From Tomocerus qinae (lineage: Eukaryota > Arthropoda > Collembola > Entomobryomorpha > Tomoceridae), in NCBI GenBank assembly GCA_020055645.1, contig CM034546.1, forward strand, positions 31,496,001-31,560,000: 64,000 bases of DNA, in the 5' to 3' direction. Shown here one piece after another: positions 10,932-61,418 of the stretch (the first letter of the stretch is position 1; the number at the start of each line of letters is the position of its first letter). The translations under genes and the position numbers were made by a program. Below the pieces are notes generated by a model. That model was not told the origin of the DNA. It was given only the letters and a program-made list of their open reading frames with translations, and did no database searches.

Positions 10932-11104
10932 TTTGTCAGATAACAAATTTAATTCACTTAATTACAATTTTCAAATTGCAGAGATAATATTGTCTTATTT
11001 GTATTGCACATGGAATTTTAAATAGTTTCATGTGATTACTTTAATTGTGTTGTGATTCATTCATTTGATTCTGCCAGAAAATACGTTTTTGAAAATAGCT
11101 TCAT

Positions 11105-16419: not shown

Positions 16420-18852
16420 TCACTTTCGACTGCGACGTTCGAAACAATTAAACATTTTGAGTTTACTGCTTTGCAGCATTTTCTTTACACTTGACATAAA
16501 TTTCAATATGATAACTGTTATGGAAATTTTAATCTCCCAAAAGAATGTCAATATGAATATAGTTGACACACAAAAAACAACACAAAAGATTGTAAAAACG
16601 TTTGAGTTATGAAACGACAAGGGCCGAGGGGATTTGTCCCAGCATGATTTGCATTTAGTAAAGTTGTGTGATTTGAAGTGATCCATCCATAAATTATAAA
16701 TTCCGGAATGGCTCATTGTAATCAAATTTGTTTTTAGAGCCTGCGCCATCAATGGTATGTTATCATTGACAATCGTCGTGAATACAGGGGCTGATAAAAA
16801 GTTTTTTTCTTTTCCCACATATAATGTTTTTTCTGGTTTAACTCCTCCACTGTCTGGATTCCAAAAAGAATCATTGAGAAAGCGATACAAGGACGAACTT
16901 TTAGCAACCAAAACAGAATTATTGCATTCTGCAATCCATTTCAGTGGATTAGTGTAAGCACGTACCGGCGGTCCTACAAAATGGTCATGCAGGTTCTTAA
17001 TGGTCTCCATGGTGGCATTTAATAAAAATTCATGGCGATAAATGTAGTCAAACTTGCATTGAAGGTCAAACATGCAACCGCTCTCCATAGATTGCACGTG
17101 TAGAACAGCTGCCTCGACAGTGCTTTGGTTAACCTGATCAAATGTCTTTTCAGTATAAGACTTGTCACACATATAATAGTTTTTTCCCAGGGCATAACGT
17201 CCGGTAAAACTGGGAATAGTGTAATTTATTTTGTAACAGTCATACAACCTGAGTATCTTATTTTGACGATGTTTGGGGATGAAAAAAGGATTAAATTCGT
17301 TGCCGTAAGTAAATACACCAACAGCAGAAATATCAGAAAGATTTGCCAAATGTTCAATTGATTCTATTTTCTTTACGGGACGTGGCTCAATTAAATCGGA
17401 AATGACAATTCCCTTATACCCATTTGTTAGTACAATAAACATAAGTAACATTGGGCCAATCAGCAATTTAAACCAAACCTTTTTGTTAGCTTCTGCCGAC
17501 AACAAGTAACTGACTTCCAACAGATAAGCAAAGCAAATCATAGCAAAGGGAATACTTTTCTCTTTTTTACAAAACGCTACACCGTAGACTAAAGCAATTG
17601 CAGATAATATTGAAAAGATGATGCCTAACCACGCATAAGGTTGAAATGGTCGAATGTAGCCGTAAAAGGACAGACTCTCATCTTCCAAGACGACACAGGA
17701 AACGAAATTAATAGAATCTTCCAATGTTGCAATTGTTGTAAAATAAGAAAAAGTAGTATATACATTCGGCATATTCAGTGTATTGAAAACTATGTTTATA
17801 AAGTTCTGTTTCCCTTTGTAACAATGCAAATGCTCACCTCCTTCTGTAAATACTACTAATGTGGAGTTTGGGAATCGACTTAGAATAACGGAAGAAATTG
17901 GCACTCCTATTCCGTTGTCTTCATTAAAGTCATAATTAGTAAAATATACATTCTGAAGCGGCGATCCACAGTAACTGCTTTTGTCTTTTGACATAGAAAC
18001 ACTTTGATCTTCACTGGTCATTGCCAATGTGTTTGCAACGGAGCTTTGATCGATGAAATAGTCTATTGCCAAAGCCGACGGTGGTTTATGGTGCAAATAA
18101 TTCTCCGAATACAAAGACACGAGGTTGTAAGTATAACGTAAAGAAATCGACTTCTGCCGGGAATCAAATTGAGGGCACAAGAAATAAATTATTGGGGCCC
18201 TTTCATCGTACATTGGTATTAAGAACCAGGGTTTCATCCAGAATAAATTATAAATCAAATTCGCTCTTTGATTCCCTTTTTCTGAAATACCGAGAAGAAA
18301 GTTGGAGTTTGACTGTGCCAGATCAGAAATAGCTTTGTCAACGAGCAAGTATACAGTATTTTTCCCAAAATGATAAAAACCAATCGGCAAATCTGCATTC
18401 CCAAAAAATCTGACGTTATCTGAAATATTTTCAGTGATATACATAATTAGCATCAGGTCCATAATGTTCTGTGGGTAAAAATTGATCACAATATTCTGTA
18501 CACATACAAAACGGTTAATTACAGGTGGTGATGACACTCTTAATTTCCTTTCGTTCAAACTGTCCAAACAATAAAAAATACCTTTCCTGTAATCAGTCTT
18601 ACGATTAGGTTTAACCAGAATTTCCATCGGCTGGCAGTACTTACTTTTCTCCTGAACATTGAGTCTGGTGTAAGCGAAAGGAATATCTATTGTCTGTAGT
18701 TCCCCATTTAATAAATCTTCTCGGTTGTTTAAATGTTGTTGTGGTAGAATCAAATTAATGTAGCAGTTTTTCTCTAAATGAACAAGTTCTGACAATTTCC
18801 ATCCCAAAGTCAACTCAGAGATTGTAATGAGGAAAGTCAAAATTGGGAACAT
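16420..18852 (-). CDS. Divergent ionotropic receptor (IR), intact
   Basis: A single exon encodes 810 residues. ATG 18852 gives the signal peptide MFPILTFLITISELTLGW; the frame is open a little further upstream but without an ATG. A long extracellular N-terminal region with several cysteines precedes membrane segment 1 (about 407-427, after FYGYIRPFQPYAW), a pore-like segment (about 433-452, IPFAMICFAYLLEVSYLL), membrane segment 2 (about 459-479), the second half of the ligand-binding region starting SDLIEPRPVKKIESIEHLA, and membrane segment 3 (about 751-774). This order is that of ionotropic glutamate-receptor-like channels. The key glycine/arginine/threonine ligand contacts of true glutamate receptors are not evident, as in divergent IRs. 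It probably acts as a chemosensory cation channel in neuron dendrites. It is the live partner of the pseudogene at 8476-10931. Confidence 0.9.
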   Translation of the reverse strand: MFPILTFLITISELTLGWKLSELVHLEKNCYINLILPQQHLNNREDLLNGELQTIDIPFAYTRLNVQEKSKYCQPMEILVKPNRKTDYRKGIFYCLDSLNERKLRVSSPPVINRFVCVQNIVINFYPQNIMDLMLIMYITENISDNVRFFGNADLPIGFYHFGKNTVYLLVDKAISDLAQSNSNFLLGISEKGNQRANLIYNLFWMKPWFLIPMYDERAPIIYFLCPQFDSRQKSISLRYTYNLVSLYSENYLHHKPPSALAIDYFIDQSSVANTLAMTSEDQSVSMSKDKSSYCGSPLQNVYFTNYDFNEDNGIGVPISSVILSRFPNSTLVVFTEGGEHLHCYKGKQNFINIVFNTLNMPNVYTTFSYFTTIATLEDSINFVSCVVLEDESLSFYGYIRPFQPYAWLGIIFSILSAIALVYGVAFCKKEKSIPFAMICFAYLLEVSYLLSAEANKKVWFKLLIGPMLLMFIVLTNGYKGIVISDLIEPRPVKKIESIEHLANLSDISAVGVFTYGNEFNPFFIPKHRQNKILRLYDCYKINYTIPSFTGRYALGKNYYMCDKSYTEKTFDQVNQSTVEAAVLHVQSMESGCMFDLQCKFDYIYRHEFLLNATMETIKNLHDHFVGPPVRAYTNPLKWIAECNNSVLVAKSSSLYRFLNDSFWNPDSGGVKPEKTLYVGKEKNFLSAPVFTTIVNDNIPLMAQALKTNLITMSHSGIYNLWMDHFKSHNFTKCKSCWDKSPRPLSFHNSNVFTIFCVVFCVSTIFILTFFWEIKISITVIILKFMSSVKKMLQSSKLKMFNCFERRSRK

Positions 18853-19604
18853 GTTGTTACATAACAAATTTAATTCCCTCAATAATATATTCGAATTACA
18901 GAGATAGTCTTATTTGAATTGATACATTCCATATTCAGTATTTACATACCATTAACTAACACTCATGGATTAGTAATTTTTTACATCTACTGTGATTGTT
19001 TGCCTGTAGTTAGAATGGTCTTATGTCGGAGTGGGATTAATTTGGTGTTGTCTTGTTCTTTGCTACTTAAAATTCCATCGTACAATGGAAAGCGAAACAC
19101 CATCGTCCAATATCCTTATATAAAAGATACTTCACATCTATAGTCAGTTGTCTCAAATGTCAAATCATTTTAGAACAACGTTGTTCAAATTATAATTGTT
19201 TTATATAATGAACTGTGGAAAAAAATTACCGTTTTACTTGGCTTTATGTTTAAATTATATTACTTGTTGGCTGGCAAAGCATTGAGATGTAAAGGAATCT
19301 TGAGTGGCGGAAAAGCAGAAAGCAAACGATGCAATGTGTCTAATGAGTTGTCTATTGTTCGCCAATCTAATTGTCTTTACCATAAACAAAAGATAAAAAT
19401 AAATGTTTCTTCTTGAACTTGTTTTTTAGGGATTCCCTTTTTATTTTATTTAACGTTAAAATCGACGTTGAGGAAACGAGGTTCATAAATTATTTGCTTT
19501 ATTTCGCTAGTCAACATTGTTATCAAATGCTGGGAAATGATTTTACGAGATTTTGAAATGATTTTGGAATGGTTTGCACAGCTTTATTTATTTTTGAAAT
19601 TCGC

Positions 19605-38850: not shown

Positions 38851-41800
38851 TTAATACAATTTCCTTAACTCCTCAAACTCTTTCTCCTCCATTCCCTTCC
38901 CCCTCCCCCATACCCTCCCCCATACCCTCCACCATCCCCTCTCCCTTCCTCCCTCCCACAAATAATAATCTGCTTTTCTGTCGACGTGGCTGGAGAGAAC
39001 CGACAAATCTTCTTCCTCCCACTTTATTCTTCCGACTGCAATTCTCTTTATTTCTTTCTTCGTCAACTCAATCAACTCTTTTGGTGTAAATGAAGGGTGA
39101 GACTCAACAACTAGTTCGTCTGTCTGAAAGTGACCCAACAATTCCTCCACTTCTTTAACAGAAAAGTCTTCTAGAATTAGTTTGTCCACTCTCCTCACTC
39201 CACCAACAACTATCGTCTTAGTTATATTGATGTGGGTGACGCTTTTGGGTATTCGATCTACATTCACTTCATTCACCCATTCGAAGTGTATGTGTGTGAG
39301 GTTGGCAGATCGGAAAGAAGACAACAAGGAAGAATCGGACATCATTACAAGTGTCAAATATTTCAGATTTGGAAGGTCAAGTGGTTCATTACAAACAACT
39401 TCTCTCCCACCTAAATCCAGTTTTTCAATTGTTTGAGGAAGACAAGAAATGTCCAAAGAAGAATAACCAAAGTCCATCTCTTTGACTTTCATTTTCGTCT
39501 TTTCCACAAATGGAATCCAACTCAATTCTAATCTTTGAATATTCCATCTGGCCTCTTTCCAGTTCAACACTTTCACTCTACTTAAGTGAAGATATTCCAT
39601 GGAGATTTCGTCACTCAATTTGATAGACATTTTACTACCCGCGAGTGACAATTTATTGATTTTGTGGAAGTCACAGAATTCGTTGAGATTCGCCTCCTCC
39701 ACTTCCCGTCCATTTCTATTGAATGGGACATCCCATAACTTTAATTCCTCTGGAGACAGTGGATCGAAAGATGAAAGATCCAATGAACAATCATCCAATT
39801 TAATTTTACTTGATTCTCCTCCCAATTCTAATTTGATTGTAGATGGACTATAAATATTCTTTACGAGAGAATAATTTGACTTTATCAGATATGAATGGAC
39901 TAATATAATCAAAGTGTCAAGTGAATCTTCTGAATAAATGACCTGGGATCTTCGTCTGCTTTCCAGAAATTCTTTTATGTCTTTTCTTTTGTCCATTTTC
40001 CAATAAATAATCAACAGATGACCCCGAATCAGATCTCTGCACAATTCTTCTTTCAATCCCACTATCCCCATCTCTACAGCTTTCCTTCCATACTCTCTCG
40101 TTTCCTCCATTTCTTCCTTCTCCAATACCTTCAGAATATCCAAACTTTCTTCCAACTGTTTATTTTTGGTCAGGCAAATTGCCAGATTAAATTTTGATGT
40201 TTGTGTTTTCAACTCTTCTGCAATTATATTTGCTAATTGGACCGATTCTTTGAATCTTCTTTGTCTTAACACTCCACTTAGAATCTTAATTGGGTGAGTT
40301 TCATCTGCTATCTTTATACCAATTTTCGATGCTTCATCAATACTGCCTAAATACAAACAGAGATAAAATATCGTATCCGCAATTTCCTTTTTGGTGGGTT
40401 CTCTTTTCAAGTCCATCAACTCCAAATCTATTTTGACATTTATTCGTTTTTCGCCAACTGTTTTCAAATATTCTAACATCTTTCCTAACGTTTCTGCCAT
40501 TTCCTCTTTTAATGAATCTATTCTTGTTTCAAGATTTAGTTCATTCAGAATATCCAAACATTTATCTTCCTGTCCATTCGTATGCAGACAGAACGCATAA
40601 TTAAATTTCGTTGTTTTAGTCTTCAACTCTCCATCAATAAATTTGGCCAACTGAACAGACTCTTCGAATCTCTCTTCTCTAATCAATTTCTTCAATTGCT
40701 TTTGATCAAGTAATTCTGCTTTGACTTTTGGAAATGCTTTCTGTAGTTTTTCATCAGCGTATTTGGTAAAGGGAATGAATTTGTAGTCGATGAATCCTAC
40801 GCAGCCGAGAATCTTCCTCAGCGTCTCCTTCTCAGTCTCTCGTCCATTGTGACGAATTACTTGCTGTAGAAGTCGGTGGACACTCAACGCAATCTTGATC
40901 GTGTTGTCAATCTGCACTTTCTTTTTGGCGACAAGAGAATATTTCTTTAAAACTTTAATTGCTCCTTTCAATTTTTCGTCGTTCTCTAAATTTAATAAAG
41001 CCGTGAAGAATTCAATTTCTACGTCATCTGGTCGAATATATCCAAAGATAAGCAGGATTTCTTGTGCTTCTTTTCCGCAATTTTCTTTTAATATTAGTTC
41101 GAATGCAATCTCTACATTTTTATTGATTGTCCGTTCATAGTCATCAAATTCGACGTCAATGATCTTTTCAAACTTATTCTTCTCAATATAGCTTTTTAAA
41201 TCTATTTTTCCACCATTCAGAGCAGCTGCAGCCAATTGAAGAGCTAAAGGAAGATTTCCCATTAGTCGACATAATTCTTTGAGTAAATGATCCGGTCGCT
41301 CTATTGATTCAAGTAATGTAGATTTTAGGAATTCCAGACTTTCATCTTCACTGAAAATGTCCAGTTCCAGATTGGATATTTTCCCGAATCCACTCTTCTC
41401 CGTCCCCCATTCACGAGTTCTTGACGTGATGATACAGTAAAAGCGTTCTTTATATTTTGGGAGGAAATTTTTGATTCCGTCTTCTCCTTTGTAATTTTCA
41501 GCATTGTCGAAGATCCAGAGACATTTGAAATGCCTCAACTCATCGAAAATTTTTATAACGACTTCTTTTAAGGCCAATTTCTCCAGATTTTCTACTTTTA
41601 AGTCTCTGGCCAGACTGTCAAAAGAGGAGAGTAGACTTCCTTCTCCACAGTCGATCCAGATTATATAATCATATTCTTGTTCGTAAGTGTGTGCATACCA
41701 TTTGGCAGTGAGGTTTGCCAACTCCGCCCATCCCGAATATTTAGAAGCAGCTAAGGACTCACAGATGACGAGCATTCTGTTCTTGTCCTTTGAAAGTCGA

Positions 41801-42138
41801 TCTTTCAACTCTTGAATTAAGAGATTCTGTCTGAATTTTCTTTTGAGAAGAGACTCAATCAGCGGCTTCTTATCTGGCCACCACTTTTGATTTATTTCTG
41901 GATGCAAGTGACGTGCAACTGTTTCCAATGGAAAGATTTTTTTAGGAATAGGGCGAGGGTGATCTTCGTTGCTTCTCTGATGTTTATTATTCACTAACCT
42001 TTGAATTTCTTGGGCACAATGCTCATTGTTTGTCTGTTTTAGTATTTCGAGAACTAAATGTCTGATTTCTACCCAGTATTTCTTTTGTAAAGTAGACCAC
42101 AGTTTGTGGTTCTTTCCGGTTGAAGTAATTTCAGCGAC
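38851..42138 (-). CDS. CARD/NB-ARC/LRR (NLR-like) gene, exon 2
   Basis: The 1095-codon exon opens at an AG acceptor (TATTATTCACAG) at 42138, phase 0, and joins the CARD start in exon 1 to give 1135 residues. Order: rest of the CARD (HKLWSTLQKKYWVEIRHLVLEI), a basic linker, NB-ARC (about 160-400) with YIIWIDC, Walker B-like KCLWIFDNAE (about 245-253), CIITSRTREW (about 275-283) and GLPL motif GNLPLAL (about 334-340), a winged-helix region, TPR-like repeats (FEESVQLAKFI, FKESVQLANII), then irregular LRRs to the end. Where Walker A should read GxxGxGK(S/T) the sequence is VICESLAASKYSGWAELA, so nucleotide binding is doubtful. NLR/Apaf-1 type proteins sense danger or trigger caspase assembly in the cytosol. 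A broken partial paralogue lies 3.3 kb downstream. The frame is fully intact. Confidence 0.85.
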   Translation of the reverse strand, partial: VAEITSTGKNHKLWSTLQKKYWVEIRHLVLEILKQTNNEHCAQEIQRLVNNKHQRSNEDHPRPIPKKIFPLETVARHLHPEINQKWWPDKKPLIESLLKRKFRQNLLIQELKDRLSKDKNRMLVICESLAASKYSGWAELANLTAKWYAHTYEQEYDYIIWIDCGEGSLLSSFDSLARDLKVENLEKLALKEVVIKIFDELRHFKCLWIFDNAENYKGEDGIKNFLPKYKERFYCIITSRTREWGTEKSGFGKISNLELDIFSEDESLEFLKSTLLESIERPDHLLKELCRLMGNLPLALQLAAAALNGGKIDLKSYIEKNKFEKIIDVEFDDYERTINKNVEIAFELILKENCGKEAQEILLIFGYIRPDDVEIEFFTALLNLENDEKLKGAIKVLKKYSLVAKKKVQIDNTIKIALSVHRLLQQVIRHNGRETEKETLRKILGCVGFIDYKFIPFTKYADEKLQKAFPKVKAELLDQKQLKKLIREERFEESVQLAKFIDGELKTKTTKFNYAFCLHTNGQEDKCLDILNELNLETRIDSLKEEMAETLGKMLEYLKTVGEKRINVKIDLELMDLKREPTKKEIADTIFYLCLYLGSIDEASKIGIKIADETHPIKILSGVLRQRRFKESVQLANIIAEELKTQTSKFNLAICLTKNKQLEESLDILKVLEKEEMEETREYGRKAVEMGIVGLKEELCRDLIRGHLLIIYWKMDKRKDIKEFLESRRRSQVIYSEDSLDTLIILVHSYLIKSNYSLVKNIYSPSTIKLELGGESSKIKLDDCSLDLSSFDPLSPEELKLWDVPFNRNGREVEEANLNEFCDFHKINKLSLAGSKMSIKLSDEISMEYLHLSRVKVLNWKEARWNIQRLELSWIPFVEKTKMKVKEMDFGYSSLDISCLPQTIEKLDLGGREVVCNEPLDLPNLKYLTLVMMSDSSLLSSFRSANLTHIHFEWVNEVNVDRIPKSVTHINITKTIVVGGVRRVDKLILEDFSVKEVEELLGHFQTDELVVESHPSFTPKELIELTKKEIKRIAVGRIKWEEEDLSVLSSHVDRKADYYLWEGGRERGWWRVWGRVWGRGKGMEEKEFEELRKLY

Positions 42139-42257
42139 CTGTGAATAATATTTGAAGAAAACATTTTACACAACTGAAGTTTGTCTGATTTTGGGACATT
42201 GAAGCACCAGTATATAGTTTGTCAAGTAAAAATAAATAGGCAGTCTGATTTTGTCTT

Positions 42258-46868: not shown

Positions 46869-48715
46869 ATTTTAGCGATCGATTAGACATGTTAATACAG
46901 ACACACAAGATTTACTAAAATATAAGTTTTGAAACTTTATTTTCGATGAAACATTTCCAACTAGCCCCTTAATTAATCATCAAATTAATCCTATTTACTT
47001 GATTGTTCACCTAAAGTTATTAAAATGTTACTAAAACCAAGACTATACATTTGGAATCGCCAAATTAAAAATGATATGAATGTGGTAATTTAATTACAAT
47101 TAATTTTTTAATCGGCAAGTAATGACTAGTAATGCCCACATTGGTTGAATCCAAATCTGATTAATGACCACTTATCACTTTGTAACAACAATCATCAGCT
47201 GCTAAGCTATTTCATATTTTTGCACCCAATTTTGTTCAAAATCTAAACACGAAATTTAACAAAGCAATTTTTACCATTTATACCACTTACCACTGCTTTT
47301 TAGGTGGTGGTATTTAACGTTAAATACCATTAAAAACCACTTACCACTGATAAGTGGTAAATGATATTTTGTACACTGCCAACAACGTTATGAAACACCT
47401 TAAATCCATTTCAAGGATATTATGCATAAAGTATAATACTACACAATCTGCTAATCAACATAATATATCTTATGTTTAATTGAACTTTATAATTGAACAT
47501 TTTCAAGCATTTGAGGCAAGAAATCTAATACGACGTTAATATTACCAGATTACTAAGGATTGAGGGCCTTGTGACAAATGTTTATGTTCCTTAGTCTAAT
47601 ATGTCTAAACTACCATAATATATTATTTATTTTATACTTTAATCACTAACATTCGTGGCATTTGTAATCACAGCATCAGTTTCCTGTAGCAGAATATCAA
47701 AAATGAAAAGTAGTACAGCTTCATATTTTAGCAGGTAACCGTAGCGTAGTATAAGGTATAGACACCTGTTAAAAATAAAGAAAAATCATTAAGTCTATTG
47801 AAAAGTTAACCCCGATTATGTTTTTAAATCGCTGTTTTATCAAACTCATCTGCATTTTTCGAATCCGTACCAATGTAAAATTCTTAATTATATTTAATTA
47901 GTGAAATGCGATGTAGAAAACTAATTTGCACACAAAAATGCAATTGAATGAATCTTTACAGCACCAGACTGACATAATATTATTACTTATTGCCTTGCCA
48001 GTACCTTTAATCTATTAATTTTTACAGTCTATTCCCATAATACAATTCAATTGTTAACATCCTGCTTATACTAAAATAAACAATAAAAACATACTGTAGA
48101 AGAGGAAATCCAAATGAAATCGACCAATAAATCAAACCGACATTTTATATTAACGTAAAAATAGTCTCAAAAAATCAGAAATGTCTAAAACTATCACAAT
48201 ATGTGGTTTGAAAATTTTTCAAAAGTCTCTAAACCCCTATTCAGGGGGGTAAAACTGTACCCAAAATGCAGAAAATTATGAGTGACTAAATAATGAGACG
48301 AGTATATCTCTGTAACGGCAAATGGTATCGTTAAGGAATATTTTTAGAAATACAATCGTATGTTGTAGATTGGTACAGTAGCAAATTTTTTCATTATTAC
48401 TGGTATGTTTTGAATAAACTGAAAATTTTCAAAAAATTTTCATTTGAAAATAATAAAAAAGCGCCAAAATATCCCACACAAGTTAGACTTCTATCAGAAG
48501 CACAGGATTCCGGCGAAACAGACGCAACTTTTTCCGCCGTGGGATCTTTTGGCGCTTTTGAGATATTGAGATCCAAAGTTTGTCAAAAAATGACAATTTT
48601 TAATCGAAATACGTACAGGGTTTCATTAACAGGCATAAAAAAGAAACTGGCAGATAAAATTTTAAATCGCAATAAGTTTTTCCTCTGCATCCAATACTTA
48701 TTATAATTTTTGTTA
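46869..48715. other. Intergenic with small hairpins
   Basis: No gene is recognised. Inverted sequences occur at 47285-47370 (ACCACTTACCACTG repeated both ways around TTAACGTTAA) and at 48456-48559 (AAAAAGCGCCAAAA... with its complement). These may be MITE remnants. Confidence 0.45.
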
Positions 48716-50170
48716 AACATATATGGCAATATAGTAAGCATATATGGATATATGTTAGGCATATATAGTGCTACTTTAAGCATATATGGATATATGTTCG
48801 GCATATATGGTGCTAATTTAAGCATGTATGGTTATACATTAAGCATACATGGCTATATATTAAGCATATATGGCTTTAAATTATGCATATATGGCAATAT
48901 ATTAAGCATTTATGGCTATATATTAAGCATATATGGCTATATATTAAGCATAAATGGCTATATATTAAGTATATATGGCTATATATTAAGCATATATGGC
49001 TATATATTAAGCATATATGGTTTTATATATATATGCATATATGGTTTATATTGTGCATATATGGCAATAAATTAAGCATATATGTATATATTAAGCATAT
49101 ATGGCTATATATTAAGCATATATGGCTATATATTAAGCATATATGGCTATATATTAAGCATATATGGCTATATATATTAAGCATATATGGCTATATATTA
49201 AACATATATGGCTATATATTAAGCATATATGGCTAATATATTAAGCATATATGGCTATATATTAAGCATATATGGCAATATATTAAGCATATATGGCTAT
49301 ATATATTAAGCATATATGGCATTATATATTAACATATTATAGCTTATATATTAAGCATATATAGCTATATATTAAGCATATATGGCTATATATTAAGCAT
49401 ATATGGCTATATATTAAGCATATATGGCTATATATTAAGCATATATGGCTATATATTAAGCATATATGGCTATATATTAAAGCATATATGGCTATATATT
49501 AAGCATATATGGCTTATATATTAAGCATATATGGCTATATATTAAGCATATATGGCTTATATATTAAGCATATATAATAATATATTAAGCATATATGGCT
49601 ATATATTAAAAACTTTATATATATAATATATTAAGCATATATGGCTATATATATTTAAAGCATATATGGCAATATATTAAGCATATATGGCTATATATTG
49701 CTTAGCATATATAATAATATATTAAGCACATATGGCTTTATATTATGCATATATGGCAATATAATAAGCATATATGGCTATATATTAAGCATATATGGCC
49801 ATATAGTTAGCATATATGGCCATATAGTAAGCATATATAGCTATATAGTAAGCATATATGGCTATATATTAAGCATATATGGCTATATAGTAAGCACATA
49901 TGGCTATATAGTAAGCATATATGGCTATATAGTAAGCACATATGGCTATATAGTAAGCATATATGGCTATATAGTAAGCATATATGGCTATATAGTAAGC
50001 ATATATGGCTATATAGTAAGCATATATGGCTATATAGTAAGCACATATGGCTATATAGTAAGCATATATGGCTATATAGTAAGCACATATGGCTATATAG
50101 TAAGCATATATGGCTATATAGTAAGCGTATATGGTTAAATAGTAAGCATAAATGGCTACATGTTACGCGC
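48716..50170. repeat. 21-bp satellite array
   Basis: About 65 tandem copies of TTAAGCATATATGGCTATATA. From about 49795 the dominant variant carries TAGTAAGC instead of TATTAAGC, so two variant domains abut. The core AGC-ATATATG-GCT is nearly self-complementary. Because 21 is a multiple of three, long frames exist on both strands (heptapeptide ILSIYGY on plus), but there is no sign that they are translated. Confidence 0.9.
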
Positions 50171-50176
50171 ATATGG

Positions 50177-50506
50177 TTATATATTACTCATAGGTCTATT
50201 TACTAAGAATGTTTGTTTTATTGAATTGGGCCTTTTTAACAGTGCTGCTGCGTTTCCCAGCACAGCGTACCGAAACACTGAGTCTATTCTAACCTGGTTA
50301 TAGCCTGCTGTGCTAGGCGCGCAGTCAAAATTCTTAAAGTCGAGTGGTCGATTTGGTATGGATTTCCTCAGAAACGGAAATGGGGACGTTATTAGCATCT
50401 TTTCGTTGATGAGCATACCATTAATTAACACATCTCCCTTGGGAGAAAAGTTTAATATATATTTTAATTTAACTAAATTATGTTGTTTTGAATCTGAGAT
50501 TTTCAC
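50177..50506 (-). CDS. 109-codon ORF of uncertain status
   Basis: The frame from ATG 50506 has balanced composition (GDVLINGMLINEKMLIT, CAPSTAGYNQVRIDSVF), unlike the AT-rich surroundings, and ends where the satellite begins. It could be a lone exon or captured gene fragment. No family is recognised. Confidence 0.3.
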   Translation of the reverse strand: MKISDSKQHNLVKLKYILNFSPKGDVLINGMLINEKMLITSPFPFLRKSIPNRPLDFKNFDCAPSTAGYNQVRIDSVFRYAVLGNAAALLKRPNSIKQTFLVNRPMSNI

Positions 50507-50529: not shown

Positions 50530-52591
50530 ATGATTAAAATTTTATGTAGTTAAAATAATGTTCGAGCTTATTGTTCATTGTACATAATTTACATAAATAC
50601 TTCAATTCTGAGTTGTTGTTAGTCTGTTAGAAATCGAAGATTTTTTAAGTAATTAGAACTTCTAGTTCTATCGTTTCCTTCTCTGTAAATCATGAATTAA
50701 TGTAGGAGGTATATGATATATGTCAGCAATGGCTATGTTTCCTATGGTAGCGGTTAGCGAATAAAAACAAGTTTGTAGCATTTTTTGGAAAAGAGCTACT
50801 ATAAAGTTGGAAATGGTATATCAAATCATTACTATGCCTAAGATGGACAAATGTGAGTCTAGAATGAAATTTCTTTGCTCTATATGTCAATCAAATTTTT
50901 TATATAGTAGTGCGCTGTGGAGGTTACAATATGATATCACGATATAATTAGTGTAAGCCCAATTCTTAAAAAACTGCTAAGATTGCAAAAGAATACGCCG
51001 GATTATGCTATTAGACTAGAAACTTGTAGGGTAAAGGTTTCTATACAGGTTTTTAAGTTTGCTCTAGACTCTGGCTTTTTATTAGAAATTAGAAATGGAG
51101 GAAGACCTTTACCCGTATATAGGTAATTTTTAATAAACTATTTAACGTTAACTGATACTAAATGAATATGATAAGATCTAGTTCTCAATGCAAGACTAAT
51201 TGTTTTACTTTTGGTTCACTATTCAAGAGAATGTTCTAAATTCAAAAAAACATTTGAATATTCAAATATAATTTAATAAAATATTTATTGTCTCCACAGC
51301 TATTCGAAATTGAATTACTCAAAGACTTAATAATCTTTCTTGCAACGACAGTCTTTATAATTTTTCTTTTGACTAAGATGAGCTTGTTAGCTATATTATA
51401 CTTCTTATAATTTGTTAATAATACATTCGCGTTTTACTCTTTTGATTCTGTATTTACAACAATTGTAAGTATGCAATTGCCTCATGTAGAAGAAATTTAC
51501 CGAATTGGCAATAGTAATAAAGATAAATATAATTGGGTGTGGAAAATGCGAACTTTGGGATAAAAATAGGCTTTGTGTTTGTCTGGGAAGCATAATGAAT
51601 TGATGTAATTAGAAACAACTATTTTGCAAAGGTTTATCCTTAGGGTTTATCTCGATATTGATATACAGAGAAAACTTGACTAAAGAGGAAATCTACCTCT
51701 CATAGCTACCACACCTGTGCTACATACAAACACATAAAATTCGAATATGTACTGCCAGAAAATTATTTGTGCAATGGAGAATGTCAATTGAACAAGTAAG
51801 AGCTCTGTGCCAGATAAGGCCCATATGGCCATATATGGTGGGGCGTGTGGGACGCCTCACTCTAGGATGTCGTCATTTAGTCTGGCCGATATTTACTATC
51901 CATAAAATATCTTCTTAAGCCTAATGATTTGAATTCAAACGATGTTATACCAATAAAGGCATTGGCTATAGAATTAAAACAACATTACATTCTGTTAATA
52001 AGACTCTAAGCTACATTGCTTAAATATGATTTCATTTAGTAATTGAAATTGATTGAATTAAATTTGCAGACATTTATTTGCTTTTACTATACCTGTTACA
52101 CACTAAATATCTTGACAGCATAAACAGTTAAAAGAAATGCTTTACATGTATATAATATAAATAAAAACATTACAATTTGGTCAACAAATAAAGAAAAACA
52201 AAAACCAAAAGAAGAAAATTTTAGTTTCTGTCGTAGTTAATCAGCATAAGCGTATTATTGTAAATATATACAAATATATTGAAATGGTTATAATATATAA
52301 CTATTATGCTCACATAATTGTAGATTAGGTGAAATAACCAATTTAAATCATAATACAATTAAATAAATAGGTTACATATTTAAAATTGAGAAGATTATGT
52401 TGAGAAGACTGTGTAACCTATTGCAGCAATTTGAAGGGCAATGTCATCCAAAGAATATTCTTGACATAACTTAGGATATTATTATAAAACATTTTGGCAA
52501 TTATAAAATTAAAAGGTTATATTAAGTCAATGTAAATCATTTTTAAGGTCAAATAATGTTACAAACCTTGTTAACAAGACTTTCTGTGCCG
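50530..52591. other. Intergenic, no gene recognised
   Basis: AT-rich 3' flank of the kinase gene. Short frames here have no support. Confidence 0.5.
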
Positions 52592-55500
52592 TTAGAAACA
52601 GCATATTCGAAAAATAATCTTCATGGACGAAAATGTTGGACGCTCTTCCGGGTTCACATCCCAACAACGCATCATTATGTAATATCTAAAATATTTTTAT
52701 ATTAAGGTAAATTCATTGTAAGTAATATCAACACATTTAATAATCAACGCGAGGTAAGAAAAAATCTATTTTGATTATCAGAACTGGGTCTTACATTTCA
52801 TCAAAAGCAATTTTTGGCTTAAAATTTCTGAGTCCATCCTGCAGTTCTTGGCTAAATTCCATGGTGGGAGCCATTCCAGGGTAGGGAATATCACCCAAGG
52901 AGAATATTTCCCACAAAGTGATTCCATAAGCCCACACGTCCGACTTTGCTGAAAAAGTGTTTGTAGTAAGACTTTCGATTGCCAACCATCGCCAAGGCAA
53001 AGGGTCTTTCGCCGTTTTGATATATTCTGTGTAATTATAAGTCCGTCGACTGAGACCGAAATCTGTCACTTTTGCGTTGCCTTCCACAGTCAACAAAACG
53101 TTCCTCGTTGCTAAATCAGAATGAATAACCTGCACAACAAACCAAAGTAATGTATGTAATTATTAATTATTTAATATCCAACACCCAAAAATACTAGAAT
53201 GTGATCCTGACTGAATATATAAAAATACAATATTTGTTAAGAGGTTTATTTTGATATTTCAGTGTAGAATTCTAATATATTTAGTAGAAGGGCGAGTACG
53301 AGCTTCCAAAATCTACGTAAAATTGGTTGGTTTTACAAAAAATGTTTCACATTTCTTCTGTAAGGAATACCCTAAAATCTTCAATAAATGCCGGATTAGC
53401 GTAAGTTATGCCTAGCTATAAACGCTGGGGCTAAAAAATGTTGGGGTTTAACGGATGTTGGTTAGAAGGCCCAGAGTTCAAATATCCGCATTGATACGTT
53501 CATAACCCAAGCTGCAAAACTGTGTTGGGAGAAGCTTGGCCCAAAGCCCGACAAAAATGTTGGCCCAGTGTCAACTTTGTCCGCCGGGACTGCGCTGGCC
53601 CAGAGCTGCAGGCCCGTCCTATACCCCTTGAAGGGCCAATGTAGTTTCTATTTGCCCCCCGACAGTATCCCAACTCGTTGCCGACTCTAATATTCAGAAA
53701 AGCAAAAAAATTGCACCAGCCCGTACCCACCATATCAACCTTCCATTTCCCAGCTCTAGCACACTACCACCTCTCTATCAATCGTTCATTGATGGGAGTT
53801 GCAATTAACTAGCTTATCAATGATGATAAGCTGGGAAAATATGGGGCCCATGGAGGGCCCATTATTACGGCGCAATGCAAGTTGGTCTCCAGTAGGCCCA
53901 ATACAGGCGTTGCAGCGAAGATCAATACACGGCTGCTGCCATGGGCCCTGTATTGGGAGGCGACTATCGGCCCTATGCATTGCTGGCCTCATCGGCCCTT
54001 TGCTGGGTAATCGGATTAATTGTATCGGGGTCATCCCCAACGGTTTCCCTTTATATCCCCAACAGACTGAAAATTTAGCCCTCGTTGGCCCAACATAGTT
54101 TGCAGCTTAAGCAAAACAAAACTGTATTACTTTGTTTGTTGTATTTTAGGAACGTGTACAGTCAATATAAACAAATTTATAAATTGATAAACAAATTGAT
54201 AGATATCATTGTATTTCTTAAAATTAGTCTTTTCCATCCAAAATAACAGTTTTGGGCAGTGGTTAAAATTTTTTAAACCACTTTCAAATCGTCTATTAAA
54301 GATGGTAAACCCAGTATTTTTGATAAACACCGGGTCAGAGTTTTTCGTGCAAACGCTCAACGCCTAAATTATATTAATGAAATGTTCAGTGCTTTTGATT
54401 CACATTATATAAATAATTATTATTATAATAAAACATTTCTCTTCAATTAATTTTATCTAACATTTTTGGTTCAAGGTATTCCATCGCACTGGCAATTTGT
54501 TCAGACCACATCAACAAGCTTTTGATGTTACACAGTGACTGCTGGAAAGCATCTGTGTTTTGCTTCCTATTGAAGACGGAAGCAAAATCAAATATAGGGT
54601 ATTTTTATTACAAGGTGGGAGTAAATTATAATACATAATGATTTAAAAAATGTATTTCAATACCGTTTGCTGATTGATGTACATGCATGTACATTTTCTA
54701 CCTTTGAATTTGGAGATCGAATGGTCCGAAAATGACGATTTGTTTATTTTTAAAAATGAGTGCAAAAGATCCCAAATGACAAAATTCTATTGCCACATAA
54801 AGTGTGCCTAAAATATTTGTATTTTTATTTTGATCTAAACAAATGTCCTTTTTTATATCTTACAATTAGTAATGACAATTACCTGACGTTATTTCTTCTC
54901 GGTATACTCCTAAGAGTGTGACCAAATGTTCGTGATGTCCAATATGCATCAGAATTTTTGCTTCAGACACGAGTGCTTTTAGCGGTCCAGTTCCACGGTC
55001 AGGACGGACAGTTTTAAATGCGGCTGTTTTATCCAGTCCGTGCAATAATCCTTTGTACACTTCTCCAAATTCCCCTTTCCCAAGCATATGAGTTTTGTCT
55101 AAAAAATTAAAAACGAACCATGGATGGAAGTCAAGGATAGGGGTGTTTGTGGCTGGCTGTTTGTGTGTGCAGGTGTAAGTTATAATAAAAAAGCTCAAAA
55201 TTCATCAATTTTTATGGCTGCTGGTGAAATCAATAATTTTAGCAAAATAAAATGCAGCTGCCTTGATTCTCAGCATAACAAAATAATATTACTATGTTAG
55301 GGCTTTAAAAAGTTTCTAAATGTGCACAGGCTTCTTCTTTTGACTGTGGGTTTGACCCAAAAGTATCTTTCAAGTATTCCATTTTCATTACAAATCTATT
55401 TAATTGAACTGTACATGAAGTAATCTTAATTTTTGATGTAGAAATTATACTAATTATACCTATTCCAATTCTGTTAAAAACATCAAATTTAATATTTTGA

Positions 55501-55933
55501 TGAATGTATACTATAATATTTTTTATTATAATTTTATTAGCTGGTCTTTATCATGAATGAAATCAAGGAACACTTCAATGAAAACAATAGGATTATACTT
55601 AACTATAACATCTATCTGGGTTACATTCAGAAAGTACTATTATTATTTTATCTTTAATAAGAAAGAGAAGTAATTGCACTCAGTTTCGACCTGAATTTTG
55701 GTGATATTAACCCTTATTTTACTTAGTTTCCTAATCAAAATGTTACGATTTGGAAAACTTCTGATTCCACCGAAAAAGGAAAAGGTTTACTCACCGATTA
55801 AGAAGGAATTCTTTTTGATTTCATAATTTTCGTCGAACAAAAAATGCAGAGGATCATTGGTTGGACCACCATCACAAGCTTTTCTTCCGTTTAGTAAGCT
55901 AATAATTTCTTTCATTTCACGTTGTCTTTTTAT
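52592..55933 (-). CDS. Receptor tyrosine kinase domain, six exons (3' half of Toll-like/kinase receptor)
   Basis: Exons 55933-55795, 55098-54883, 54807-54702, 54566-54461, 53129-52795 and 52685-52592 encode a juxtamembrane segment and a complete tyrosine kinase fold. Seen in order: glycine loop LGKGEFGEV, lysine in KTAAFKTV, helix-C glutamate in SEAKIL, hinge VAIEFCHLGS, catalytic HSDLATRN (serine replaces the usual arginine of HRD), DFGLSR, PLPWRWLAIES, KSDVWAYGITLWEIFSLG, and RCWDVNPEERPTF. The frame stops soon after, leaving no tail. The kinase is closest in style to VEGFR/PDGFR-type receptors (family-level judgement). Phases fit everywhere except 54461 to 53129: the only GT after EYLEPK is one base out, as if a G were lost at the donor. 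Upstream it splices in phase 0 from the ectodomain exon at 56115. Expected role: plasma-membrane signalling by tyrosine phosphorylation. Confidence 0.82.
53508..54107. mobile_element. GGCCCA-rich MITE in a kinase intron
   Basis: The ends are inverted: AAGCTGCAAAACTGTGTTGGG on the left, and on the right a complement with one deletion and one change. The interior is unusually GC-rich for the window and full of GGGCC/GGCCC words. It explains the apparent ORFs here, which carry no protein family. Confidence 0.7.
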
Positions 55934-56114
55934 CTAAACAGTCCAAATAAGTATTATAGCTATAAGTTATGAGCAAAGACCACTTCTTGTACGAAATAGA
56001 TATCCACGGTTTTGATTTCAAGTGTTAATTAAAAAGAGATATAATTTGTAGTAGTATGAAAGCAATGATGAAACAAACAATGAAGGTAAATCAAATTTTA
56101 ATTAATACTTTTAC

Positions 56115-58268
56115 CTTTTCTTGCAGCAAATATATAATAATGATGACCAAGAAACACAGAAAGAACAATCCTAAAGATGTAATAATGAAGTTGATTAGGA
56201 CTGTCAGTTTCAGGACACAATCGGTCTTCAAGTACATCAATAGTATTAAGCTGGTGTGTTGTTATGTTCTTGAATATACATGCCATACGGTCAACATCCA
56301 AACGACTAGAAAAATGTCGCCATTCTTGTTGGAATCCCATGCAGTCTTCACATGGGAAAGGATTATTCGCAAGTGAGAAGTTGATTGTGAAATTGTCTCT
56401 CAGAGCACGAAGGAAGGACAAGGAAGTTATTTGATTGTCTGATAGGTTAACCATCTTTAAATGCGGAGAAAGTGTTGAAACGTAGCTATTAGTGAGTTCT
56501 GTTATTTTATTTCAGCGAGATCTAAATCCAGTTTCCAATTTAATGGGCTACCTGGTACCTTCAGTATGGTGTCCATGTTATCCATATTAGGAAGTTTGAA
56601 TTTAGAAATGTTGACGTTTCTTCTTGAACAGTCTATCAGAATGGTAAAATCTGAAGGACGTTGCCAACATTCGCATCCGATTGGACAATCGTTGTTTATT
56701 TGGCATCTGAAGTCTTCATCTGTATAACCTTTCTCAGGTATAACTTATTTAAATTATTAGGACCAGCACAGAGGACATTGTGAAAATTAATTTTGAAGGT
56801 GTTTGAACAGAAACTTTTCAGATACAGTGCATGACAGTCGCAATTAAGTGGAATGGAGGGTCCCAAAATAATATTCACTGTACGTTTATCATCTGACGCT
56901 GGATCACGCAGGTGGATCTTTGCATCAGCCATATCAATATGTGTAATAGGATTTCCATCTAGACGCACTGTAATATTTTTTTGCCTAAACGAAAAATCTT
57001 TCGCCGAAAGATATGAGTTATATTGTTGTCTTTCAAATCAAGTTCATTCAAATCCTTTAATGACTTTCTCCAATCAAAATCAATTGATTTTATTCTGTTG
57101 CTTATTAGAATAAGCTTTTTCAGCTTTAAGTAAGATATGAAAGGAGATTGACTTTCCCCAGTAATATTTGAAACAGCAGAATGATTATTTTTTTGTATTT
57201 AACGAAATTATATTGCCCGAAAGATCTTTAAGCTTATTCCCTGATAAGTTCAATTCGATAAGGTTTGAAGGCCTTTTTAATTGTGGGAAATCTGTTAATC
57301 CTAGATTTTGAAGGTGCAATGTCTTCAGATTTGATAAGGCCTGAAAGGTTCCTTTCGAAGAAATGGCTTTGAGAGTATCTTCTTCCCAAGGCAATTTGTG
57401 AATTTGGTAACCGACTTTTAATTCCTCTAATTTTTTCTATTTTGATATTTGATGAAATTCTTTGAATGAGGCATATAGCAATGTCAATTCCTTCAATTCC
57501 AGTAGATCTTGAAATGTGTTTACTTCAAGATTATTCAAAGGATTTCGGTCAATATGAAGAACTTGAAGACTCTTAAGATTATTAAACGATTCAAAGGTCA
57601 AGGAAGATATTTCATTTCCTGCAAGTTCAAGCCTGGTTAGCGAGTCTGGGAAACAACCGTTTTCGATGGCTATCAACTCATTGCGATCCAATAAAATTTT
57701 GGTTAAGTTTCTATTGTTTGCTAATGCATCTCTAGGAACATAAACAAAGGGAATTGTCGTCAAGAGCGAGCGATTCGAGTCTCTTTAAATTTTCCAAATT
57801 TGGGAACGTCTTTAACTCGTTGCCGGAAAGATTCAAGCTCAATTAAGTTTGGTATTTCATTGAAAAAGTATGATGGCAATGATTGTAGCCGGTTCCAAGT
57901 TACAATGAATGTCTCTATATCTGCCCCATTTGTTTTTAACTGTTTAAATAAGGTTAGGTGGCCACCGCTGATTCGTTCAAGACGACAATTTTTTCATCTC
58001 CAATTGTGTTACTTGCAAATCGTCTTTTCTCAGATCAACACCTTCGATTGTTTCCCAGTTGAATTTTGTGGGGCATTTTCGCAGTCGACCAATAATGACG
58101 CCTTATGAGTAGATCCTTCCAGTATCCTAATACTTAGACCAATATATTTTTCACCAACAGTGGGACACACTATTTCCAATTCGTCTTCATCTTGTTCACA
58201 AACGCAGTTACCTGCGAAGAAGTTACTTTCCCGTTTAACACAAAAAATTGACAAATTATAACTAACAT
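56115..58268 (-). pseudogene. Toll-like LRR ectodomain and membrane segment, about ten frame breaks
   Basis: Pieces in changing frames read, in order: signal peptide from ATG 58268 (MLVIICQFFVLNG), cysteine-rich N-terminus (CVCEQDEDELEIVC), LRRs (LTRLELAGNEISSLTFESF, LIELNLSGNKLKDL), a C-flanking cluster (LNCDCHALYLKSF, about 56820), a second N-flanking cluster (CPIGCECW, about 56680), further LRRs (MVNLSDNQITSLSFL), a final C-flank (CEDCMGFQQEWRHF) and a 26-residue membrane segment (56192-56115, LGLFFLCFLVIIIIYLLQEK). C-flank followed by N-flank is the arrangement of Toll proteins. The exon ends AAG before GTAAAAG, phase 0, and joins the kinase exon at 55933. Breaks include one in-frame TAG near 57441 and shifts often at A-runs, so assembly error is possible. 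No TIR domain is found. Confidence 0.75.
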
Positions 58269-59125: not shown

Positions 59126-60046
59126 TTAATATGCCGTCCATCGATCTATTTGCTTTTTTGCTCTATGACTTTTCCGTAAAGTCAAATCTTCTGTAGGTCG
59201 TCCGCGTATAGTAGTTGTTGTTTTAGGTTCGTACTTCCTGCCTCGAATTATGTTATATGATGCTGTACCAGACTTTTGCTTCTTGTCGATCATAACTTTG
59301 GATGTATTTTGCCTTTTATGATCTCTGTTACTTCCTATCAGATCATCCCTTTCGTGTAAAGGAGCCAACTTCAATTTCTTTTTTCCGTTTGATTTAAAGT
59401 TTCAACATAATCTTCCCACTTGTCATTTTCATTGTTGTCCGTTACTCCATTCTTCTTTCCCCTCTTTAAGCCAGGAATAACCAATGGTTTTCGCTGTAAA
59501 AGCCACGGTTCTACAGGACTAAATTTTTTTGCATAAAACGGTGTGTTTTTCAGGATATAGACGATTGTCATGAATACTCCGTTTCTTTTTTCTCTGAATC
59601 TTGCTGCTTTTAGCATTAGGCTGTTCTCCATTTTCTGTACTTACGCTTCTTTTTCTATTATTTGTAGATAATGTCTCGTACATTTCATCATCGTCATTCT
59701 CAGTGTCTACAACTTCTTCATCTTCATTATCGTCAAACTCATCGTGAACAGTCACTTCATCTTCATCTTTGTCAATCTCATTATGAACAACATTAGCTTC
59801 ATTTTCAACATTAGCTTTTGACATTGAGGTTTCGTTGCATACGGAATTAACATTTTTCACCAAAATTGGTCTGTTTTTAGCATTCTCCTTTTTTTGATAT
59901 AAATTTCTTGCTTGTTCCTGATATAGTAAAAGTTTTACATCATCAGGTAACTTACTGTTTAATATATTGTTTGTTGAGGGCCTATTAACAGTATGCATTA
60001 TCTGCTGGAATGCATATTCCGGCACTAAACGCATTCGCTTTACCAT
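59126..60046 (-). pseudogene. Polinton conserved protein of unknown function, frameshifted
   Basis: ATG 60046 starts MVKRMRLVPEYAFQ, a start typical of a short basic protein found in many Polintons. It is followed by a long acidic stretch (runs of D and E, about residues 90-130). The frame changes near 59519-59631 and again near 59371, where pieces ending RAKKQIDRWTAY continue to 59126. The start overlaps the stop of the upstream ORF (TAATG), a compact virus-like arrangement. Confidence 0.55.
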
Positions 60047-60379
60047 TATGGCCCAAATAGTTTATTTGCCAAAAGACCAAGAACAGATGACAATATAATC
60101 GGCAAAAAAGCACCTCCGTGTTGAATCAATATTTTTTTCTTTTTATCCAATGGTAGTTTTGAGTCAAAACAAATTTTTTTAATGATTTTTCAGACTTTTT
60201 TAATTTTTGTACTTTTGATTTATTTATAGGAACGTTTTTATTAACTACGTTTAATGTAGCTTCACAGAGGGAACAAACTTGATCTGGAGTTGCTGCAGAT
60301 AAAAGTTCTGCTTTATACTTTTGTTAGCCTTTAAATAATTACTAAGGAATGCGTGATTTGCTTTGATTCGTTTCACCAT
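60046..60379 (-). pseudogene. pX-like core protein ORF of the Polinton, frameshifted
   Basis: ATG 60379 opens a lysine-rich frame that breaks near an A-run at about 60325. The second frame contains CSLCEATLNVVN and ends in a glycine/hydrophobic C-terminus (GGAFLPIIL) at 60046. This layout, basic with a hydrophobic tail, resembles the adenovirus pX-like protein of Polintons (family knowledge). It is described as found, not restored. Confidence 0.5.
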
Positions 60380-60487: not shown

Positions 60488-61418
60488 ATGGAGAAGGTTA
60501 TTAAGCAGTACACCAATGTTAAACTTCCAGGAGCCTATTCGAGTCTTTCGGGATTTTTAAAAAAGCTCAAAAGTGAAACATAAAAGAGATGTAGTAAAAA
60601 ATTCTCTATCTACTATTCCTGGTTATATCCTACATTTTCCGGCACCAAGGCGATTTCAAAGAAGACGTGTAATTGTACAAGGAATTGATGACCAATGGAG
60701 CCACTGACTTATTAGATATGAAAAAGATGGAGTAAGTCTAATTACAAAAGGAAATATATATTATGTGTAGTTGATGTATTTTCTAAGATGGCTTGGATGG
60801 AAGCATTACCAAATAAAAATGCTGAAACAGTAGCTACAGCATTTACCAAAATACTTAAAAGAACAAAGCGTGTGTGCAAACACCTGCAATCAGATTTGGG
60901 TACCGAATTCATAAACTCAAAAATGAAAAAATTGACATTGTTACACAAAATAAATCATTTTGTTGTACATTCACCAATGAAAATGCTGTATTGTTGAAAG
61001 ATTTATTCGAACAATTGGACAGAAGATATCTCGGTATATGACACAAAACAAAACCAAACGTTTTATCAATAAACTTAAAGACTTTGAAAATCTCTACAAC
61101 AACTCATATCATCGAAGTATAAAAATGAAACCAATCCAAGTCAATACTTTGAATGAGAAGGTCGTCTGGGAAAATCTGTACGGAAATGTTAAAACCGCAA
61201 AGAAATTACAACTGCGGTATAAAATTGGTGACGCTGTTCTAAAAACAAAATCTAAATCCATTTTTGAAAAAGGATATTCTACATATTTTGGAGAAGAAGT
61301 CTTCTACGTCCGCGCGATCAAAGCTTCTAACCCACCAATGTATTATTTGAAAGACTGCAATGGTCATAATATAAATGGCGGCTATTATCAACAAGAGCTA
61401 AAGAAATCATATAAATAG
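60488..61418 (+). pseudogene. Polinton integrase (rve type), several frameshifts
   Basis: Reading starts at ATG 60488 and the frame changes near 60580, 60705, 60760 and 60990. Recognisable parts are the pre-catalytic QGIDDQW, VFSKMAWMEALPN and SDLGTEF (second catalytic aspartate) and, in the last frame (61038-61418), a C-terminal region with YNNSYHRSIKMKP and a DNA-binding tail. Polinton integrases insert the element with 6-bp duplications. With this many breaks no active enzyme is made. Confidence 0.8.

What the first reader, a model, noticed from the sequence alone, without database searches (positions are those of the whole stretch)
52592..58268. Toll-like ectodomain spliced in phase to a tyrosine kinase
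The ectodomain has the Toll signature (LRRs, C-flank, second N-flank, LRRs, C-flank, membrane helix). Its exon ends in a canonical donor whose phase 0 matches the exon of a receptor tyrosine kinase where a TIR domain would be expected. Known LRR-bearing animal RTKs (Trk) have only a few LRRs plus Ig domains. I know of no described Toll-type/RTK receptor, so this may be an undescribed receptor class converting Toll-type ligand sensing into phosphotyrosine signalling.
Basis: partly seen in the sequence, partly recalled or inferred. Interest (0 to 1): 0.88.

Follow-up and report, generated by a model that had tools for sequence, protein, structure and literature searches.

The report
Toll-ectodomain receptor tyrosine kinase, decayed copy
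The window holds a broken copy of a gene family, also present as unbroken copies in the same genome, in which the outer part of an immune-type Toll receptor is joined to a tyrosine kinase, a combination I did not find described.

Summary
On the minus strand, 58268-52395 reads as signal peptide, Toll-type ectodomain, membrane helix, phase-0 donor, juxtamembrane and kinase exons. The ectodomain exon, however, changes frame ten times and holds one stop; against its closest paralogue the gene carries 12 frameshifting indels. In the same genome 23 of 28 related ectodomain loci on contig C1 are followed, same strand, within 12 kb by a matching kinase. Three fetched copies give complete proteins, and dN/dS is below 1 in ectodomain, membrane/juxtamembrane and kinase. 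The kinase is PDGFR/VEGFR/KIT-like, not Trk-like, with HSD for HRD. The ectodomain's nearest sampled relative is a TIR-bearing Toll on contig C2 (about 50% identity, 100/100). That Toll has five ectodomain introns, the fusions none, suggesting a retrocopied Toll ectodomain captured by a receptor kinase and then amplified. Transcripts, ligand and signalling are untested.

The parts
58215..58268 (-). signal-peptide-like start (MLVIICQFFVLNG...)
   Evidence: translation, by eye; the complete paralogues start with similar hydrophobic leaders
56115..58268 (-). Toll-type ectodomain exon: LRRs, LRRCT (CDCHALYLK), second LRRNT (CPIGCECWQ), short LRRs, LRRCT, membrane helix; pseudogene with ten frame changes and one TAG (57437-57439)
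   Evidence: flank names by eye
56115..56192 (-). membrane helix (SLGLFFLCFLVIIIIYLL, by eye) and end of ectodomain exon; GTAAAA donor follows, phase 0
   Evidence: the same junction was modelled in L041-L045 and L055-L057, L060
55795..55933 (-). juxtamembrane exon (IKRQREMKEIISLLNG...), phase 0 in, phase 1 out
54883..55098 (-). kinase exon e3: glycine loop GKGEFGEV, lysine AFKTV, alpha-C glutamate
   Evidence: residue roles recalled
54664..54807 (-). kinase exon e4 (hinge, start of kinase insert), two 1-bp frame-breaking indels
   Evidence: end placed by eye by comparison with L041
54462..54566 (-). kinase exon e5 (alpha-E), one 1-bp frame-breaking indel
52795..53129 (-). kinase exon e6: catalytic loop HSDLATRN, DFG, activation loop
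   Evidence: Pfam 1.3e-35
52567..52685 (-). kinase exon e7 (end of C-lobe), one frame change
52395..52469 (-). last exon (LCQEYSLDDIALQIAAIGY...), short tail; stop placed by eye
   Evidence: matches the last exon of L042

Best explanation
The window locus is a decayed member of a multi-copy family of chimeric receptors ('Toll-RTKs'): a Toll ectodomain and membrane helix encoded by one long exon, spliced in phase 0 to the juxtamembrane and kinase exons of a PDGFR/VEGFR/KIT-like receptor tyrosine kinase. SHOWN: joined architecture in many copies; complete ORFs with GT-AG introns in three fetched copies; dN/dS below 1 on both halves; one clade for the sampled ectodomains and one for the sampled kinases; a TIR-bearing Toll as nearest sampled relative of the ectodomain; the window copy broken. 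INFERRED: a spliced Toll transcript was reverse-copied next to (or into) a receptor-kinase gene, and a splice donor just behind the membrane helix joined the two; the chimera was then duplicated, some copies dying. INFERRED function: the LRR horseshoe binds a ligand and pairs or clusters the receptor, as in Toll, but the output is phosphotyrosine from the kinase rather than TIR-adaptor signalling. The non-RD catalytic loop, copy number and less constrained ectodomain fit a role in defence, which is a guess.
For: Own-genome ectodomain search: 77 matches; 23 of 28 merged C1 loci paired with a same-strand downstream kinase within 12 kb, one of the 23 being only a 242-bp fragment. Complete models: L042 1157 aa, 8 exons, 7 GT-AG introns, no inner stop; L044 1087 aa; L045 1155 aa with weak junctions 2 and 4, scores 82 and 17. 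Open to the fetch edge: L056, L060, and L055 with its 5' end cut. dN/dS over 6 pairs of 4 copies: ectodomain 0.33-0.42 (0.64 for the youngest pair), TM/juxtamembrane 0.13-0.26, kinase 0.14-0.29. Ectodomain tree, 26 rows: C2 Toll plus six fusion rows 100/100, fusion rows 96/94. Kinase tree, 85 rows: five fusion rows 100/100. The C2 gene carries a TIR and five GT-AG ectodomain introns that the fusions lack. Window lesions. HSD is shared with the intact copies.
Against: No transcript or protein evidence. 4 of the 11 loci in which both halves were read are broken (window, L039, L041, L043), and 5 of 28 C1 ectodomain loci have no kinase within 12 kb. Some close kinase loci have no ectodomain match nearby: L061 (81% identical) has none in its 6.8 kb, and none is listed upstream of the 82% match at C1:47534192. 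Retroposition rests on intron absence alone: no poly-A tract or target-site duplication was looked for, intron gain in the C2 Toll is not excluded, and only one Toll of this genome was in the tree. Kinase activity with an HSD loop is untested.
Confidence: 0.85

Rival explanations
1. Two separate neighbouring genes: a TIR-less Toll remnant next to an unrelated kinase gene, joined only by eye.
For: The window copy alone cannot be translated across the join, and a phase match has about a one-in-three chance.
Against: The same order and strand recur in 23 of 28 loci and the phase-0 junction in the modelled copies; dN/dS is low on both sides of the junction; the sampled fusions are one clade in both trees; none of the 7 TIR matches lies on C1.
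Confidence: 0.03
2. The window gene is functional and its frame changes are assembly errors.
For: Of the 12 frameshifting indels, 9 are of 1 bp, 2 of 2 bp and 1 of 7 bp.
Against: Unbroken 829- and 1104-aa ORFs in the same window and unbroken ectodomain ORFs of 710-839 aa in seven paralogues of the same assembly.
Confidence: 0.05
3. Real fusion, but the receptors serve development or cell adhesion, not defence.
For: PDGFR/VEGFR-type kinases and some Tolls act in development (general knowledge, recalled); nothing here tests function.
Against: Copy number, gene death and a less constrained ectodomain are unlike single-copy developmental receptors; KIN-16 family RTKs are needed for oomycete recognition in C. 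elegans (PMC10523662, passages seen).
Confidence: 0.3
4. The ectodomain exon is ancestrally intron-free and was joined by DNA-level exon shuffling; the C2 Toll gained its introns later.
For: Five of the seven TIR matches (all on C5) lie in open frames of 1234-1638 aa, so intron-poor Tolls exist in this genome (the C4 match lies in 681 aa, the C2 match in 90).
Against: The nearest sampled TIR-bearing relative has five ectodomain introns that would all need to be gained.
Confidence: 0.25
5. A degenerate Trk-type receptor (LRR, Ig, kinase).
For: Trk is the known LRR-bearing animal RTK family (PMC8662651 passage).
Against: No Ig domain in the Pfam scan of L042; of the 60 PDB sequences shown for the L042 kinase, the first is EGFR and the rest are PDGFR, VEGFR, KIT, CSF1R and FLT3 (some CSF1R entries named as FGFR1 chimeras), none Trk; the ectodomain groups with a TIR-bearing Toll.
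Confidence: 0.01

Closest known systems
Toll / Toll-like receptors (arthropod Toll)
   Same: LRR ectodomain with internal C-flank/N-flank pair, membrane helix; nearest sampled relative is a TIR-bearing Toll of the same genome
   Different: tyrosine kinase instead of TIR; ectodomain in one exon
PDGFR/VEGFR/KIT-class receptor tyrosine kinases
   Same: kinase domain, with a kinase insert by eye; best PDB and tree neighbours
   Different: LRR ectodomain instead of Ig domains; HSD instead of HRD
Trk receptors
   Same: LRRs plus tyrosine kinase in an animal
   Different: no Ig found, Toll-type LRR array, kinase closer to another class
C. elegans KIN-16 family (OLD-1, FLOR-1)
   Same: lineage-specific RTK family, there required for oomycete recognition (PMC10523662, passages)
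   Different: no Toll or LRR outside part is mentioned in the passages seen ('Toll' does not occur in its main text)
Plant LRR receptor kinases
   Same: works-like comparison only: LRR ectodomain, helix, kinase; non-RD kinases associated with innate immunity (PMC8463890, start of abstract in the listings)
   Different: independent origin and another kinase family (recalled)

Membership tests
Toll/TLR | LRR ectodomain with LRRCT followed by LRRNT and second LRRCT | tested here: met
   (flanks by eye and by alignment to 7b1b); groups with a TIR-bearing Toll
Toll/TLR | cytosolic TIR domain | tested here: not met
   only 181 bp lie between ectodomain exon and kinase exon; the 7 own-genome TIR matches are on C2, C4 and C5; no TIR in the Pfam scan of L042
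Receptor tyrosine kinase | single membrane helix and tyrosine-kinase domain with catalytic Lys, Glu, Asp, DFG | tested here: met
   intact L042: Pfam PK_Tyr_Ser-Thr 5.6e-73; residues in the translation; helix by eye, no predictor run
Receptor tyrosine kinase | catalytic-loop HRD | tested here: not met
   HSD in the window and the modelled copies; HAD, HGD or HSD in several related springtail receptors printed, while P0129 there keeps HRD
Receptor tyrosine kinase | kinase activity | not testable with these tools
   needs biochemistry
PDGFR/VEGFR class | Ig-type ectodomain | tested here: not met
   LRR families only in the ectodomain
Trk | LRR plus Ig ectodomain | tested here: not met
Trk | Trk-type kinase | tested here: inconclusive
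   no Trk among the 60 PDB rows shown, but no Trk row was in the tree
Functional gene (window copy) | continuous reading frame | tested here: not met

The most novel reading that the evidence does not exclude
One kinase module in this lineage has been plugged onto many outside parts, as plant receptor kinases have, and a retrocopied Toll ectodomain is one of them: a turning-over set of Toll-RTK pattern-recognition receptors that send Toll-type recognition through a non-RD tyrosine kinase. In the same genome a close kinase sits behind an IPT/TIG exon (L059), other close kinases (L046, L058) show no Toll match in the fetched stretch, and springtail relatives carry trypsin/LDLR, lysozyme, PAN, Sema or Ig domains by the precomputed Pfam columns.
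Probability: 0.45. Interest if true: 0.9.

Novelty: new variant of a known kind. Interest (0 to 1): 0.8.

Why it matters
As far as I recall, animals read Toll-type LRR sensors through TIR adaptors and put other outside parts on tyrosine kinases, while plants wire LRRs to kinases. A Toll ectodomain on a tyrosine kinase, kept by selection in several copies, would be an animal case of the plant layout and an example of how a new receptor class is made (retrocopy plus a new donor site). It also makes testable whether a Toll-type ectodomain can drive phosphotyrosine signalling.

Tried and rejected
Tried without use: literature searches for such a receptor and for springtail kinase or immune receptor expansions (the Folsomia genome paper PMC5490193 was searched for terms: no 'tyrosine kinase' and no 'Toll' in its main text). 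Two papers were searched for passages and not used further or only as context (PMC10199209; PMC8662651). Pfam on eight springtail kinases lacking a known outside domain showed no LRR family. AlphaFold of P0001 with four relatives: mean pLDDT 42.9; row 43 of its Foldseek list is 8akp, a Penicillium catalytic domain (E 7.6e-6, TMt 0.59), which fits my eye reading of a glycosidase-17-like outside part but proves little.

Rejected: two neighbouring genes, assembly error, Trk (see rivals). Earlier idea that HSD in the catalytic loop is a pseudogene lesion: rejected, because intact copies have it too. Earlier e4 boundary (54702) in the read-through: wrong; by comparison with L041 the exon ends at 54664, so the read-through used and the WINDOW row have a misread stretch there. 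Similarity of the first intron bases to the Toll cytosolic linker: looked at by eye, too weak to use.

Limits of counts: the label 'coll_' was given to all rows of P0121-P0189; at least P0165 is a fly (Bradysia) and several rows are unnamed, so 'springtail' for the nearest kinases rests on the named rows. In one search the models of L043, L055, L056 and L060 are absent from the tree (L043 stops early; the others, as far as I can tell, did not match the motif my script used to cut the ectodomain). dN/dS used 4 copies. Exon ends were picked by a script that favours GT/AG pairs matching L042 and disfavours stops within about 15 codons of a junction. In one search, 52 of the 134 kinase matches were typed in, chosen by eye.
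Full report
WHAT IS IN THE WINDOW. On the minus strand from 58268 to about 52395 lies a gene-like series: a signal-peptide-like start, LRRs, an LRR C-flank (CDCHALYLK...), a second N-flank (CPIGCECWQ...), short LRRs, a second C-flank, a hydrophobic helix, a GTAAAA donor at 56115, and, 181 bp on, a juxtamembrane exon and kinase exons. Pfam finds LRR_8 (5.5e-18, 3.1e-9) and PK_Tyr_Ser-Thr (2.3e-9, 1.3e-35) on single pieces. The ectodomain resembles a solved Toll-like receptor best (7b1b, 3.4e-28), and a Toll-like protein of Planococcus aligns to residues 14-679 of its 711 at 27% identity.

THE WINDOW COPY IS BROKEN. The ectodomain must be read in eleven pieces, i.e. with ten frame changes, plus one in-frame TAG. 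Against L041, 96% identical in the ectodomain exon, 13 coding indels are seen, of which 12 shift the frame: 9 in the ectodomain, 2 in e4, 1 in e5. Exon e7, not found behind e6 in L041, changes frame as well. Third-position changes are little enriched in the ectodomain (29, 20 and 38 differences at the three positions, of about 700 each) but clearly in the kinase (9, 7, 26 of about 312 each). Unbroken ORFs of 829 and 1104 aa in the same window speak against poor assembly.

THE JOIN IS REAL IN OTHER COPIES. The genome (334 Mb, 115 contigs; window at C1:31496001-31560000) gave 169 kinase-family matches, a lower bound because 115 of 1299 candidates were scored. A search with the window's kinase gave 134 matches, 119 of 884 candidates scored. 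A search with the L042 ectodomain gave 77 matches, 58 of 147 candidates scored; merged, 28 loci lie on C1, and 23 of them have a matching kinase downstream on the same strand within 12 kb (52 of the 134 kinase matches were typed in; one of the 23 is a 242-bp fragment). The converse is not complete: L061 and the match at C1:47534192 are close kinases without an ectodomain match nearby. I read 11 loci with both halves (window, L039, L041, L042, L043, L044, L045, L055, L056, L057, L060). Complete from start to stop: L042, 1157 aa, 8 exons, 7 GT-AG introns; L044, 1087 aa; L045, 1155 aa, with weak scores at junctions 2 (82) and 4 (17). Open as far as fetched: L056 and L060, and L055 whose 5' end is cut. 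L057 is open, but junction 4 scored 2 and its last exon was not found. Broken: the window; L043 (stop at codon 438, kinase part open); L041 (start region disrupted by eye, e7 not found in the roughly 320 bp fetched behind e6); L039 (a short duplication in e5, by eye, and stops inside an ectodomain match). The six other fetched kinase loci: L040 holds only an N-terminal ectodomain scrap; L054 was cut before its ectodomain, which one search places at C1:65135995; L046, L058, L059 and L061 show no Toll ectodomain in the fetched stretch.

SELECTION. For six pairs of four copies dN/dS is 0.33-0.42 in the ectodomain (0.64 for the youngest pair L042/L044), 0.13-0.26 in helix plus juxtamembrane, and 0.14-0.29 in the kinase (Nei-Gojobori in my own script). 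L041, one of the four, is itself damaged. Both halves have been kept, the ectodomain under weaker constraint.

WHERE THE HALVES COME FROM. Kinase: PDB hits of the L042 kinase are headed by an EGFR entry that holds two kinase copies, followed by PDGFR-alpha, VEGFR, KIT, CSF1R and FLT3; no Trk among the 60 shown of 2236. In an 85-row tree the five fusion kinases form a 100/100 clade within a large group consisting mostly of springtail receptors, next to arthropod VEGFR/KIT-like rows (94/94, drawn open). That the animal is a springtail is inferred from this alone. The catalytic loop reads HSD in the window and the modelled copies; HAD, HGD or HSD occur in several related springtail receptors printed, but P0129 there has HRD. 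Ectodomain: the genome's TIR matches are 7, on C2, C4 and C5. One, at C2:14658023, lies in a gene whose ectodomain is 47-50% identical to the six fusion rows, against 26-32% for the other 19 rows; in the 26-row tree it joins the fusions at 100/100, the six fusion rows forming a 96/94 clade. Other Toll-type loci of this genome (for example C2:14127313, C2:14703743 and those on C5, 26-34%) were not in the tree. The C2 Toll has five ectodomain introns, each with GT-AG and a matching junction peptide; the fusions have none. The simplest reading is a reverse-copied Toll message captured by a kinase gene, once. Intron gain in the C2 Toll is the alternative.

HOW IT MAY WORK. Inferred: ligand-driven pairing of the LRR ectodomain brings two kinase domains together; output is phosphotyrosine. 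The key catalytic residues other than the HRD arginine are present in L042 (translation; roles recalled). Non-RD kinases have been linked to innate immunity (PMC8463890, start of abstract as listed), and KIN-16 family RTKs are needed for oomycete recognition in C. elegans (PMC10523662, passages). These are analogies, not tests.

NOVELTY. Searches of the open-access library gave nothing in their listings that describes such a receptor (subscription papers are largely missing). LRRs on animal RTKs are tied to Trk in PMC8662651 (passages). The three protein searches list 120 of 126, 120 of 651 and 120 of 190 hits; none is an animal LRR plus tyrosine-kinase protein by name; rows with both LRR and kinase Pfam columns are plant, amoeba or unnamed. 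Proteins of other springtails (Orchesella, Allacma, Folsomia) are in that database, so the fusion may be restricted to this lineage or unannotated elsewhere.

Noticed in passing
window 38854-42165 (-): Unbroken 1104-aa ORF with an NB-ARC domain (2.5e-6), an animal NB-ARC protein near the receptor.
   Followed up: partly
window 16423-18909 (-) and 8479-10961 (-): Two similar long ORFs, one unbroken (829 aa), one split by a frame change; by eye like ionotropic-receptor-type membrane proteins, no Pfam match at 0.01.
   Followed up: partly
window 48713-50186: Tandem array of a 21-bp unit, 69 copies.
   Followed up: no
L059 145-564 (+), C1:59964700-59971699: An IPT/TIG exon (6.5e-10) lies upstream, same strand, of a kinase about 75% identical to the Toll-RTK catalytic exon: another outside part near a close kinase.
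   Followed up: partly
P0142, P0146, P0156, P0180, P0168, P0133: Springtail receptor kinases with lysozyme, trypsin plus LDLR, PAN or Sema/PSI/IPT domains by precomputed Pfam columns; wide ectodomain swapping in one kinase group.
   Followed up: no
P0001 and relatives P0122, P0124, P0129: Outside part that by eye resembles a glycosidase-17 enzyme; low-confidence model, one Foldseek row to a fungal catalytic domain.
   Followed up: partly
P0280: Tardigrade protein named endoglucanase/cellulase with a PF02015 domain and a tyrosine kinase by precomputed Pfam.
   Followed up: no
window 60722-61418 (+) and about 59129-60061 (-): Integrase-like and other mobile-element-like ORFs upstream of the receptor; by eye, no Pfam match for the pieces tested.
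   Followed up: no
C1:72256374 (L061) and C1:47534192: Close kinase loci without a Toll ectodomain match nearby; what lies upstream was not identified.
   Followed up: no
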